Positions 17,288 through 21,241 of a DNA stretch of 59,567 nucleotides are shown piece after piece; position 1 is the stretch's first letter, and each line of letters begins with the position of its first letter. A model generated the notes under the pieces. That model ran no database searches. It had not been told where the DNA came from and saw only the letters and a list, made by a program, of their open reading frames with translations. Location: contig JAEIOG010000021.1 of the NCBI GenBank assembly GCA_016342495.1, positions 1 through 59,567 of the forward strand, written 5' to 3'. This stretch comes from Phycisphaerae bacterium. Lineage in GTDB: Bacteria > Planctomycetota > Phycisphaerae > Sedimentisphaerales > SM23-30. A program made the position numbers and the translations under genes.

Positions 17288-17739
17288 TCATTATTAATTA
17301 TGTTTTTGGCTGGCAGCTACTAATACCATTACCGCAAAATCAGCTGCCGGCCCACTTTTTTTTCAATTAAGGCCGCCCAGGCCGCCTGTTAGTTAATTAT
17401 AGCAGTTTTTTGTGGCTGGTATGCTGGTATTTTAGCCCATTTCCAATTTAAACCGGCCCGCTTGGCAGGCTTTTACTGTTATTAATGCTATTTTATCCTC
17501 AAACAAATAAAACACCAGATAAGAATAGTAGCCAACCGGCCAGCCATCAAGGGAAAAATCAGCCGCCGGCCATTTATCTAAAGCTCAAACCGGATATTTC
17601 ACCCCCAAACCAGCACCCAAACGACCCAAACCAGCGCAAAACCGACCCAAAACAAAATATTTCAGGTTTAAAACAAGATATACCACACCTGCATGGCCAT
17701 CCTGCTGACAGCGGGACAATTATTCTGCCAGCAGCAGCA

Positions 17740-17899
17740 TTATGCTGGCATCATCACGATTATGCTGGCAGCATAACGATTCTGCTGTGAGCATAACGAT
17801 TCTGCTGTGAGCATAGCGATTATGCTGGCATCAGGAAGCTTCTGCTGGCAGCAGAAGAGTTCTGCTGAGTGCAGGAAGATGATTCCACTGTGCAGGAGC
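17740..17899. repeat. Array of seven to eight 20-bp units (direct)
   Basis: Units start every 20 bp from 17740: TTATGCTGGCATCATCACGA, TTATGCTGGCAGCATAACGA, TTCTGCTGTGAGCATAACGA and variants, ending with a degenerate unit at 17880. Each unit is itself nearly palindromic around TGCTGGCAGCA. There are no spacers, so it is not a CRISPR. The surrounding interval 17288-18519 contains no gene I can support. Confidence 0.75.
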
Positions 17900-18021
17900 C
17901 CAAAGTAAGTCAACTTTATCGAAATTCGGACCTTAATCAGAGCATTTCACACCAGAAATGGAACAAAGTAAGCCTGCAGCAGCATAATTCGGACGTGAAT
18001 AAGCCTAAAGTAAGCCGGAAT

Positions 18022-18101
18022 AACTCTCCTGCTGCCAGCAGAACGCTCCTGATGCCAGCAGGACGCTCCTGATGCCAGCAGAATCGTCCCGCACGCCCGA
18101 T
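18022..18101. repeat. Inverted array of 20-bp units
   Basis: Three clear units and a degenerate fourth, again with a 20-bp period (18022, 18042, 18062, 18082), of the type AACGCTCCTGATGCCAGCAG. Their reverse complement matches the units at 17740-17899, so the two arrays face each other across about 120 bp that carries three AAAGTAAG motifs. Confidence 0.7.
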
Positions 18102-18328
18102 AACAGGATAATAAAACGTCCAATAACAACCAATCGACCTTATCAGTAGCATTAGAGGCATTTTTATACAAATTGCAGGTTTGCAGCGAGATTGAGCAGT
18201 TATCGGATGTGAAATAGCAGATAAGATTGCACGCAAAGCCGCCAAGGCGCAAAGAACAGGTGTCAATTTTGACTATGTCTGTAGCCTGAAATGATGTTTT
18301 TATAATATTATCAGAAGGAGAAAAGGTA

Positions 18329-18377
18329 GGTCAGATGAGACTTTCGAACTGTATTAGCCTACCAGTATCATCTGACC
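18329..18377. repeat. Perfect 10-bp inverted repeat, possible RNA stem downstream of the template repeat
   Basis: GGTCAGATGA (18329-18338) pairs with TCATCTGACC (18368-18377) around a 29-nt interior. It lies about 140 bp downstream of the template repeat in its direction of reading. In characterised retroelements the RNA 3' of the template is structured and needed for cDNA synthesis, so this could mark the end of that RNA; this is inference. Confidence 0.45.
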
Positions 18378-18519
18378 TGTCATATCATTCGGCTCCAGCT
18401 CTATTGGCGAGCTGACAGCTCAGGAACAAGGCCAGGACTTACATTTTGCCACGCTGGCATAATCCGTAAATTATGTCATTCAGGGCGAATAAAATCACGA
18501 TTATATTCATTTGTAAGTG

Positions 18520-18657
18520 CAGGCCAGAAACGACGACAACGCACACACGAAAACCGTTGTTGTTGTTACGGTTGTCGGGGTCATTGTTGTTGCGATTGGC
18601 AACCCGGCAGTTAGAAGCACTATTGTTCCAACTGCCGCCGCGAATAAGACGCCGGGT
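18520..18657 (-). other. Template repeat (TR) of a diversity-generating retroelement
   Basis: A 138-bp stand-alone segment with gap-free homology to the 3' ends of the two genes at 18770 and 19923. Read on the minus strand it would encode '[11 protein letters not shown]', '[16 protein letters not shown]' and 'GFRVC': twelve AAC/AAT/GAC codons sit exactly where the two genes vary. I count 16 differences from VR1 and 10 from VR2 at template adenines, plus one non-adenine difference (18539 versus VR1). The 37 bases at its 3' end contain no adenine and carry no mutagenised site. There is no gene body upstream of it, so it is not a third full gene. Confidence 0.88.
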
Positions 18658-18713
18658 TGAACGGCCCTGCCCCTTTTGGGAAAACTCTATTATTATATTT
18701 TAAATCGGCCCTC

Positions 18714-18729
18714 GCTACGCTCGGGTAGC
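18714..18729. repeat. Short hairpin between TR and VR1
   Basis: GCTAC/GTAGC, 5-bp stem with a 6-nt loop, lies about 47 bp beyond the VR1 3' end. Some DGR targets need a hairpin just after the VR, but this one is short and not tight against the VR. Confidence 0.25.
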
Positions 18730-18769
18730 AAAAAAGGGTAAAAAGACAAAGTATAAAGGGTAACTAATA

Positions 18770-19570
18770 TCAGTCCAGGCCAGAAACGACGACATCGCAC
18801 ACACGAAAACCGCCGCTGAAGCTACGGAGGTCGGGGCCACTGGTGTCGCGATTGGCAACCCGGCAGAGAGAAGCACTATCGTACCAACTGCCGCCGCGAA
18901 TAAGACGCCGGGTGCTACTGGAAGGCCCTTTCGGGTCTTTACTGGCCAGATTGCGATAACTATCCTGATAATAATCCTGACACCATTCCCAGACATTGCC
19001 ATGCATATCATATAGCCCAAATTTATTAGGCTTTTTCTGGCCCACCGGATGGGTTTTATCGCCACTGTTATCTTTATACCAGCAGTAATCACCTAAATCG
19101 TTTTCACTATCACCAAAACTAAACCTGCTCTGGCTTTCGCCACGTGCGGCATATTCCCATTGAGCCTCGGTGGGCAAAGTTACCTGCATCTTAGTGATTT
19201 CACTGAGCTTTTTACAGAACTTTTGAGCATCATACCATGAAACACACTCGACGGGATTCTTTAAGCCACTGAAATAACTGGGGTTCTTGCCCATGACAGC
19301 TATGTATTGCTCCTGAGTAACTTCAAACTTGCCCATTAAAAAAGGCTTACTTATCTCAACTTTGCGAACCGGGCTTTGAGACATATATCCGCCGGCTTCA
19401 TTATCGGGACTTCCCATCATAAAACTACCGGCAGGGATCTTGACAAATTCTATTTGCACACCATTGCCCAGATCATAGACCAGCTGAACCTTGGGGCTTT
19501 GGCAACCACTAAAGATCAAAACCAATCCTGGCAATAATACCAGCAATATCCTGCTAATAATCTTCTGCAT
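18770..19570 (-). CDS. DGR target 1: variable lipoprotein with FGE/C-type-lectin-like fold
   Basis: A 266-residue surface lipoprotein. Signal peptide ends in lipobox FSG-Cys23. The rest is a formylglycine-generating-enzyme-like (SUMF1) domain: 'VKIPAGSFMMGS', 'PVECVSWYDAQKFCKKLSE', 'LPTEAQWEYAARG', 'GLYDMHGNVWEWCQD', 'RGGSW', 'GFRVC'. FGE proper needs a Cys pair near RGGSF/W; only one Cys (SASLCRVANR) is present, so enzymatic activity is doubtful. Residues about 220-265 are the variable segment. I start at 19570 because AAGGA lies 7 nt before it; an in-frame ATG five codons upstream is less likely. Outside the variable segment it matches the second copy. FGE-like folds are known DGR display scaffolds (e.g. 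the Treponema lipoprotein TvpA). Confidence 0.9.
   Translation of the reverse strand: MQKIISRILLVLLPGLVLIFSGCQSPKVQLVYDLGNGVQIEFVKIPAGSFMMGSPDNEAGGYMSQSPVRKVEISKPFLMGKFEVTQEQYIAVMGKNPSYFSGLKNPVECVSWYDAQKFCKKLSEITKMQVTLPTEAQWEYAARGESQSRFSFGDSENDLGDYCWYKDNSGDKTHPVGQKKPNKFGLYDMHGNVWEWCQDYYQDSYRNLASKDPKGPSSSTRRLIRGGSWYDSASLCRVANRDTSGPDLRSFSGGFRVCDVVVSGLD
18776..18913 (-). other. Variable repeat 1 (VR1)
   Basis: 138 bp aligned to the template without gaps. Differences: 16 at template adenines (coding strand), giving the residues YD, L, DTSG, L and SFSG where the template has Asn or Asp; one further change (18795) is a template T, giving CDVVV instead of CVVVV. It ends one codon before the stop. 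Confidence 0.88.
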
Positions 19571-19922
19571 AACTTTTCCTTTCATCTAAAACTCACCGAT
19601 TTTTAACTCAAAATCAAAACATTAACAGACCACAGAAGCATTTTAAGGCAATAAAAACTATAAATCAACGACTTTATCCTCTAATTATGCCATAAATAAG
19701 AACTTTTAAAGCAATATTAACAATATCAAAACCCCCTGAACCCAAAAGCACAGCCAATAAACTCGCCTGGCTCTCATCCAGTAAATCCTGTTAATCCTGT
19801 CTAAAAATTCTTATATTATCTTCGTGCCCTTCGCGCCTTCATAGTGAATATTTTAAAGCATCCCTCGCCCTGGCCGGGAACAATTAAAGCCTAACAGCAC
19901 AAATTACAAAGGGTTATTAATA

Positions 19923-20723
19923 TCAGTCCAGGCCAGAAACGACGACAACGCACACACGAAAACCGTTGCCGATGTTACGGTTGTCGGGGACATTGCCGTA
20001 GCGATTGGCAACCCGGCAGTAAGAAGCACTATGGCTCCAACTGCCGCCGCGAATAAGACGCCGGGTGCTACTGGAAGGCCCTTTCGGGTCTTTACTGGCC
20101 AGATTGCGATAACTATCCTGATAATAATCCTGACACCATTCCCAGACATTGCCATGCATATCATATAGCCCAAATTTATTAGGCTTTTTCTGGCCCACCG
20201 GATGGGTTTTATCGCCACTGTTATCTTTATACCAGCAGTAATCACCTAAATCGTTTTCACTATCACCAAAACTAAACCTGCTCTGGCTTTCGCCACGTGC
20301 GGCATATTCCCATTGAGCCTCGGTGGGCAAAGTTACCTGCATCTTAGTGATTTCACTGAGCTTTTTACAGAACTTTTGAGCATCATACCATGAAACACAC
20401 TCGACGGGATTCTTTAAGCCACTGAAATAACTGGGGTTCTTGCCCATGACAGCTATGTATTGCTCCTGAGTAACTTCAAACTTGCCCATTAAAAAAGGCT
20501 TACTTATCTCAACTTTGCGAACCGGGCTTTGAGACATATATCCGCCGGCTTCATTATCGGGACTTCCCATCATAAAACTACCGGCAGGGATCTTGACAAA
20601 TTCTATTTGCACACCATTGCCCAGATCATAGACCAGCTGAACCTTGGGGCTTTGGCAACCACTAAAGATCAAAACCAATCCTGGCAATAATACCAGCAAT
20701 ATCCTGCTAATAATCTTCTGCAT
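19923..20723 (-). CDS. DGR target 2: variable lipoprotein with FGE/C-type-lectin-like fold
   Basis: A 266-residue twin of the gene at 18770-19570. Residues 1 to about 224 are identical, including lipobox and FGE-like motifs, and the DNA looks identical through 20871. The variable segment has its own residues: SH, Y, YGNV and NIGN at positions where the template has Asn or Asp. Start at 20723 on the same AAGGA argument. The copies arose by a recent tandem duplication of about 950 bp and then received different variable segments. Expected location: outer surface, as a ligand-binding display protein; the ligand is unknown. Confidence 0.9.
   Translation of the reverse strand: MQKIISRILLVLLPGLVLIFSGCQSPKVQLVYDLGNGVQIEFVKIPAGSFMMGSPDNEAGGYMSQSPVRKVEISKPFLMGKFEVTQEQYIAVMGKNPSYFSGLKNPVECVSWYDAQKFCKKLSEITKMQVTLPTEAQWEYAARGESQSRFSFGDSENDLGDYCWYKDNSGDKTHPVGQKKPNKFGLYDMHGNVWEWCQDYYQDSYRNLASKDPKGPSSSTRRLIRGGSWSHSASYCRVANRYGNVPDNRNIGNGFRVCVVVVSGLD
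19929..20066 (-). other. Variable repeat 2 (VR2)
   Basis: 138 bp aligned gap-free to the template. All 10 differences fall at template adenines (coding strand); no other base differs. Fewer changes than VR1 suggest a different or more recent homing event. Confidence 0.88.
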
Positions 20724-21241
20724 AACTTTTCCTTTCATCTAAAACTCACCGATTTTTAACTCAAAATCAAAACATTAACAGACCACAGAAGCATTTTAAG
20801 GCAATAAAAACTATAAATCAACGACTTTATCCTCTAATTATGCCATAAATAAGAACTTTTAAAGCAATATTTGTCCGCAGATGCCCGCCGATGGCCGCCG
20901 ATAATGGTGATTGTCTATTTGCCGGGTCTTGAATATTTAACAAGAAGGCATCAAGGTCACGAGGAAAATTTTGAAATTATAAGATAAGACCATCTAAATA
21001 ATTCTGTATTCAACTAAACAGCCGGCAGCTGTCCTGTCTAATAATTCTTATATTACCTTCATGAACTTCATGCCTTCATGGTGAATATTTTAAAGCATAA
21101 TAAAGCCAAACCCTCTCATCTGCGTATATCTGCGAATATCGGCGGACAAAACCTGCTCTGAAAATCTGCCAAACCGGTGCATACTCTGGTTTTCTCCGGC
21201 TGACAAGCCAATAAAAAAAACCGCACCGCCAAGGTAAACCC

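What the first reader, a model, noticed from the sequence alone, without database searches (positions are those of the whole stretch)
18520..20066. Diversity-generating retroelement cassette: one template repeat and two variable lipoprotein genes
Seen: three gap-free 138-bp segments (18520-18657, 18776-18913, 19929-20066). The first lies outside any gene and is rich in AAC/AAT codons. Against it VR1 differs at 17 bases and VR2 at 10; 26 of these 27 differences are at adenines of the template (coding strand), and they hit 19 of its 30 adenines. The two targets are otherwise identical, so variation is concentrated in the last 47 codons. Known: this A-specific pattern, a C-terminal VR on an FGE/C-type-lectin fold, and a lipoprotein anchor match DGR targets such as TvpA of Treponema. 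Inference: the cell displays two mutable binders on its surface.
Basis: partly seen in the sequence, partly recalled or inferred. Interest (0 to 1): 0.95.

Follow-up and report, generated by a model that had tools for sequence, protein, structure and literature searches.

The report
DGR cassette lacking its reverse transcriptase
A planctomycete carries two twin surface-type protein genes whose tails have been rewritten only where a nearby template has the letter A, but the enzyme that does this is not next to them, so a machine encoded elsewhere in the genome probably drives this stand-alone template and its targets.

Summary
26 of 27 TR-VR differences are at template adenines, and the two target genes are identical outside the VR. 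This is a genuine diversity-generating retroelement (DGR) template/target set; the target's best solved relative is TvpA of Treponema. The genome holds two complete DGRs on other contigs (C78, C80), and the window keeps their RNA/DNA signals. A ~200-nt structured RNA follows the TR; a covariance model built without the window finds it at 105 bits, E 1.6e-29, and 37 of 45 pairs show two-sided changes. A VR-adjacent hairpin occurs exactly six times in 5.4 Mb, always at DGR loci. A remote VR on a third contig matches the C80 template with 28 of 30 changes at A. Best reading: an RT-less, non-autonomous cassette served in trans by the C78 or C80 RT-Avd. Main rival: a recently frozen remnant. RT-less loci have been seen before, so this is a new variant of a known kind.

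The parts
18520..18657 (-). Template repeat (TR)
   Evidence: 26/27 TR-VR differences at TR adenines; 18 variable codons, none stop-capable
18324..18523 (-). Structured RNA directly 3' of the TR (Sp-like element)
   Evidence: Held-out covariance model R2: 105.3 bits, E 1.6e-29, only hit in the window; 37 of 45 pairs with two-sided changes across 13 TRs; sub-threshold Rfam RT-3 match at 18332-18439
18770..19585 (-). Target gene 1, FGE-sulfatase/C-type-lectin-fold lipoprotein (271 aa; internal ATG at codon 6 may be the true start)
   Evidence: PF03781; PDB 2y3c TvpA E 5e-43
18776..18913 (-). Variable repeat VR1
   Evidence: 17 differences from TR, 16 at A
19923..20738 (-). Target gene 2, twin of gene 1
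   Evidence: Identical to gene 1 outside the VR
19929..20066 (-). Variable repeat VR2
   Evidence: 10 differences from TR, all at A
18709..18725 (-). VR1-adjacent hairpin CCCGAGCGTAGCGAGGG
   Evidence: Core CCGAGCGWAGCGAGG occurs 6 times in 5.4 Mb; five sit just 3' of DGR VRs, the sixth upstream of avd on C80 in a repeat of a VR 3' flank; reversed control 0
19862..19878 (-). Degenerate counterpart of the hairpin after VR2 (CCCGGCCAGGGCGAGGG)
   Evidence: Position and GC-rich ends by eye; not an exact match
18765..19718 (-). Tandem-duplicated tract, first copy (second copy at +1153)
   Evidence: All differences lie in the VR
18658..18708 (-). Gap between hairpin and TR where C78/C80-type loci carry avd and RT; weak trace of an RT 3' end (CAAAAGGGGC)
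   Evidence: Local alignment to the C78 RT tail reached by 5 of 500 shuffles; suggestive only

Best explanation
A non-autonomous DGR cassette. The TR and its 3' structured RNA are transcribed, probably by read-through from the target genes on the same strand. The RT-Avd complex encoded at the C78 and/or C80 DGR binds the conserved 3' RNA in trans, copies the TR with errors at adenines, and the cDNA replaces the 3' end of one of the two lipoprotein genes, guided by the TR/VR boundary and the hairpin after the VR. Shown by sequence: TR, VRs, adenine specificity, intact conserved RNA, conserved hairpin, two complete DGRs elsewhere, and a remote target matching the C80 template. Inferred: transcription, binding of this RNA by either RT, and present activity. 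The cassette probably arose from a complete DGR of the C78/C80 layout by loss of the avd-RT block.
For: No RT/Avd in the 59.6-kb contig (all RTs of the genome). Two DGR RTs elsewhere with YxDD and the GxxxSQ signature and bAvd partners (PF22296). The window TR RNA is found by a model trained only on RT-linked TRs, and the genome has exactly three such RNAs, at C78, C80 and the window. Paired positions where window and C80/C78 differ include 9 and 7 two-sided compensatory changes. The same C->G boundary change at the end of the TR/VR match (TR CTGCA, VR CTGGA) occurs at window, C80 and C78. The hairpin is shared by window, C78 and C80 and restricted to DGR flanks. VRs diverged after the gene duplication with no other change in 954 bp, so mutagenesis is recent. 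Trans targeting in this genome: the C132 VR matches the C80 TR with 28/30 differences at A and no TR/RT beside it. The VRs cannot come from the C80 or C78 TR, which are only 80% and 72% alike to the window TR. Similar RT-less TR+RNA+VR loci occur at G332:C86 (8/9 and 8/9 at A) and G442:C1 (19/22 at A).
Against: No reads, transcripts or strain comparisons. RNA pairing in the window is slightly poorer than average in some helices (H2a 4/5, H3 6/8), with 5 broken pairs relative to C80 and to C78. VR2's hairpin is degenerate. One non-A difference. No DGR-type RT was recognised in G442 among those checked, so RT-less loci can also be remnants. Which RT would serve the window is unresolved (TR closer to C80, 3' RNA and hairpin loop closer to C78).
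Confidence: 0.68

Rival explanations
1. Frozen remnant: a complete DGR lost avd and RT after diversifying the two genes, fixing two useful variants; TR and RNA are decaying leftovers.
For: RT-less TR-VR remnants have been read this way in Nostoc (all3226, PMC7517822), and leftover targets in T. denticola (PMC4891356). VR2 hairpin is degenerate; C141 shows an avd remnant beside a VR, so decay happens in this genome.
Against: The TR RNA is intact at full length (105 bits held out) with compensatory changes relative to C80/C78. Duplication and VR divergence are so recent that no substitution separates the copies outside the VR, while RT and avd are already gone apart from at most a 10-bp trace. 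Two compatible RTs remain.
Confidence: 0.24
2. The RT is really in cis in part of the population: the assembled contig is a structural variant or mis-assembly around the near-identical target copies.
For: In Thiohalocapsa PB-PSB1, intact and disrupted versions of a DGR locus coexist (PMC10907252). The genome is in 221 contigs with a 1-kb tandem repeat here.
Against: The TR, RNA and VR1 flank lie in unique sequence with core genes on both sides. The RT reading frame that is open through the TR at C78 and C80 has stops in the window TR, though that overlap is not universal.
Confidence: 0.07
3. Not a DGR: a third, decayed copy of the lipoprotein gene with chance adenine bias.
For: The VR frame is open through the TR.
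Against: p 8e-19 for adenine bias, no stop-capable variable codon, conserved DGR RNA after the TR, same layout at two RT-bearing loci.
Confidence: 0.01

Closest known systems
Bordetella phage BPP-1 DGR (TR, Avd, bRT, Mtd)
   Same: Adenine-specific TR->VR transfer, structured RNA 3' of the TR that recruits RT-Avd (stated in PMC12875486), boundary mismatch at the end of the repeat (own knowledge for BPP-1), hairpin after the VR (PMC3240598)
   Different: BPP-1 has RT and Avd in cis; here neither is. The hairpin here has a GNA-type triloop with flanking G-A steps (by eye) instead of a 7-10 bp stem with a 4-nt GRNA loop.
Treponema denticola TvpA DGR
   Same: FGE/C-type-lectin-fold lipoprotein with C-terminal VR; 2y3c is the best solved relative; remote targets known (PMC4891356)
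   Different: There one core module serves remote VRs; here a second, different TR also lacks its RT.
Degenerate DGR loci of Thiohalocapsa PB-PSB1
   Same: Loci lacking RT, with diversification best explained in trans for some (PMC10907252)
   Different: Its clear trans loci (DGR 4, 5) use another locus's TR; the window uses its own TR with its own 3' RNA.
Nostoc all3226 remnant
   Same: TR-VR homology without a nearby RT (PMC7517822)
   Different: Described as a remnant; conservation of a TR RNA is not reported in the passage read.
Rfam RT-3 RNA (RF03068)
   Same: Same position and strand, shared GGUAG...UCGAA hairpin
   Different: 20 bits against a gathering score of 40.5; not a member by Rfam's cut-off.

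Membership tests
Diversity-generating retroelement | TR/VR pair with substitutions at template adenines | tested here: met
   26/27 at A
Diversity-generating retroelement | VR at the 3' end of a C-type-lectin-type target gene | tested here: met
   PF03781; VR covers codons 225-270 of 271; 2y3c TvpA best PDB match
Diversity-generating retroelement | DGR-type reverse transcriptase in the cassette | tested here: not met
   No RT in the contig; two DGR RTs on other contigs. So: TR and VRs of DGR type, but not a complete autonomous DGR.
Diversity-generating retroelement | Accessory Avd gene in the cassette | tested here: not met
   None in the window; bAvd at C78 and C80
Diversity-generating retroelement | Structured RNA 3' of TR recognised by RT-Avd | tested here: inconclusive
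   Structure conserved and present; recognition not testable here
Diversity-generating retroelement | Hairpin/cruciform after the VR | tested here: met
   VR1 exact; VR2 degenerate
Diversity-generating retroelement | Adenine-directed variation among cells | not testable with these tools
   Needs reads or strains
Rfam RT-3 (RF03068) | Score at or above the gathering threshold | tested here: not met
   20 vs 40.5 bits

The most novel reading that the evidence does not exclude
RT-less TR-RNA-VR cassettes form a real class of non-autonomous DGRs: one RT-Avd serves several different templates in a genome because all carry the same 3' RNA fold, so new targets gain diversification without their own enzyme. 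Surveys that anchor on the RT cannot see them.
Probability: 0.45. Interest if true: 0.72.

Novelty: new variant of a known kind. Interest (0 to 1): 0.55.

Why it matters
If an RT can be shared by separate templates through a common RNA fold, DGR repertoires are modular, and surveys such as Roux et al. 2021, which required an imperfect repeat within 20 kb of an RT with one copy within 1 kb of the RT gene (PMC8144416), miss part of them. The covariance model gives a direct way to find such cassettes, and the three TR RNAs of this genome make template sharing testable. For protein diversification tools, the conserved 3' RNA suggests what a template must carry.

Tried and rejected
RT or avd remnant in the window by tblastn: none. 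Weak 10-bp RT-tail match 5' of the TR: kept as suggestive only. Rfam identity with RT-3: sub-threshold and not repeated at the other TR RNAs; RT-7/RT-15 weak at one locus. Structure prediction of the target with a 6-sequence alignment: mean pLDDT 37, not used. Assigning the partner RT by similarity: contradictory (TR closer to C80; 3' RNA and hairpin loop closer to C78). Phage origin: no phage match; plasmid hits only short cyanobacterial matches inside the TR. Other candidate RT-less hits (G262, G374, G555, G580, G626) were partial or had no clear TR/VR set and were not counted.

Full report
OBSERVATION. TR against VR1 differs at 17 bases, TR against VR2 at 10; 26 of 27 are at template adenines and 19 of 30 adenines are hit; Fisher p = 8e-19. 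The two target genes differ only inside the VR, 18 positions, in a 954-bp tract that is otherwise identical (18765-19718 against 19918-20871); with uniform placement the probability is about 8e-16. So the VRs changed after a recent duplication. The template has 18 codons that can vary, none of which can become a stop. The finding is real.

TARGETS. Both 271-aa proteins are FGE-sulfatase-domain proteins (PF03781) whose closest solved relative is TvpA, the DGR variable protein of Treponema denticola (2y3c, E 5e-43). The N-terminus reads as a lipoprotein signal (LVLIFSGC; by eye, not tested). Surface display is therefore plausible, not shown. A structure prediction failed (mean pLDDT 37).

WHAT IS MISSING. 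The window is a whole contig (C169, 59,567 bases) of a 5.42-Mb, 221-contig genome. It has no RT and no Avd. The genome has four RVT_1 genes. Two are DGR RTs, on C80 and C78, with YCDD and GNLTSQ motifs, adjoining bAvd genes (PF22296), TRs overlapping the 3' end of the RT gene, and target genes. C80 TR to VR: 19 of 20 differences at A, the exception being at the boundary. C78: 18 of 20 for one target, both exceptions at the boundary. The second C78 target has a shorter VR, so its ungapped count beyond the indel is not meaningful. The other two RTs look like a group II intron type (QGGPLSP) and a retron-like RT (inference from motifs).

THE RNA AFTER THE TEMPLATE. Aligning the regions 3' of the three TRs showed conservation beyond the repeat. 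RT relatives were collected from other genomes, nearly all of the close ones Planctomycetota, and their TRs found by profile; ten of eleven had a VR in the same locus with mostly A-directed differences, L053 being weaker. The post-TR regions of window, C80, C78 and ten of these loci fold into a common structure starting directly at the end of the TR: 45 pairs, 37 with a change on both sides, covariation score 0.631 against 0.249 in shuffles and at most 0.154 when slid. As a held-out test a model was built from the 12 RT-linked sequences only; it finds window 18324-18523 minus with 105.3 bits, E 1.6e-29, and nothing else in the window. The full model finds exactly three copies in the genome: C78, C80 and the window. 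Between the window and C80 there are 9 two-sided compensatory pairs, 5 broken; between the window and C78, 7 and 5. In the BPP-1 system the corresponding spacer folds and recruits RT-Avd (PMC12875486), so the same role is inferred here. Rfam RT-3 matches the place weakly (20 bits, cut-off 40.5).

DNA SIGNALS. At window, C78 and C80 the TR/VR match ends in CTGCA in the template and CTGGA in the target. A hairpin follows the VRs (compare PMC3240598). Its core CCGAGCGWAGCGAGG occurs six times in 5.4 Mb, reversed control zero: after both C78 VRs, after the C80 VR, after the C141 VR, after window VR1, and once upstream of avd on C80 at the contig end, inside a repeat of the C80 VR 3' flank, which suggests a second, truncated target there. 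After VR2 the element is degenerate.

TRANS ACTION. C132 carries a VR that matches the C80 TR with 28 of 30 differences at A, with no TR or RT beside it; C141 carries a VR identical to that of C80. So a DGR of this genome has acted on remote targets, or the targets moved after being mutated. The window goes further: its VRs fit only its own TR (80% identity to the C80 TR, 72% to the C78 TR), so an enzyme from elsewhere must use a separate template. The intact 3' RNA is what such use would need.

ORIGIN. C78 has the order target, hairpin, avd, RT, TR, RNA, and C80 appears to have the same with the first target cut by the contig end. The window has target, hairpin, about 51 bp, TR, RNA. The simplest origin is loss of the avd-RT block; a 10-bp match to the C78 RT tail at the expected place is suggestive (5 of 500 shuffles). 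The RT frame through the TR, open at C78 and C80, has stops in the window, as expected if that frame is no longer used, but other relatives do not overlap RT and TR at all.

OTHER CASES. The model matched 8 of 298 genomes of the class and 24 of 392 of the phylum. Most full-length strong matches lie beside an RT. Two more do not: G332:C86 (two VRs, 8/9 and 8/9 at A; that genome has other DGR RTs, but 8% contamination) and G442:C1 (19/22 at A, a NACHT-FGE target, no RT within 20 kb and none with the DGR signature among the two checked). RT-less loci therefore recur, and at least G442 may be a remnant.

KNOWN OR NEW. Remote targets (PMC4891356, PMC7517822), degenerate RT-less loci and trans diversification (PMC10907252) are published. 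What I did not find in the papers read is an RT-less cassette with its own template and a covariation-supported 3' RNA shared with the RT-bearing loci of the same genome. The literature search was limited to open papers. I rate it a new variant of a known kind.

LIMITS. Host: class Phycisphaerae is inferred because the TR RNA of a named Phycisphaeraceae record (L050) has the same coordinates as in G039, listed as same class. Activity, transcription and the partner RT are not shown. The genome is 95% complete, so a third RT elsewhere cannot be excluded.

Noticed in passing
L122 (G199:C62) 357-559 minus and the gene upstream: An FGE-domain gene runs directly into a full-length TR-type 3' RNA (E 8e-33), with the template-type boundary (TGCACTT): a target gene fused to, or overwriting, the template.
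   Followed up: partly
L058 2451-2661: The TR beside an RT has lost many adenines (GGCAGCGTT..., TACTACTACGG), as if the template itself had been partly overwritten by a mutated copy.
   Followed up: no
L035 11572-13017 and L036 4017-5429: RT reading frames run on through the TR in another frame, giving a glutamine-rich tail (RRQLEQQ...QQQ); template and enzyme tail share DNA.
   Followed up: partly
L102 6625-9918 (G442): RT-less DGR target is a NACHT-FGE protein next to a calcineurin-like phosphoesterase, resembling the putative conflict systems reported for Thiohalocapsa PB-PSB1.
   Followed up: partly
L037 4928-6849: C141 carries a VR identical to the C80 target, followed by the hairpin, a short avd remnant and a transposase-like ORF (by eye): a DGR locus apparently broken by an insertion element.
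   Followed up: partly
window 17700-18090: Arrays of about 20-bp units (TGCTGGCAGCAG..., AACGCTCCTGATGCCAGCAG) fill the gap between ribF and the TR RNA.
   Followed up: no
L071 205-280: A TR RNA in G212 overlaps weak Rfam RT-7 and RT-15 matches, hinting that several Rfam RT-n motifs may be DGR template RNAs.
   Followed up: no
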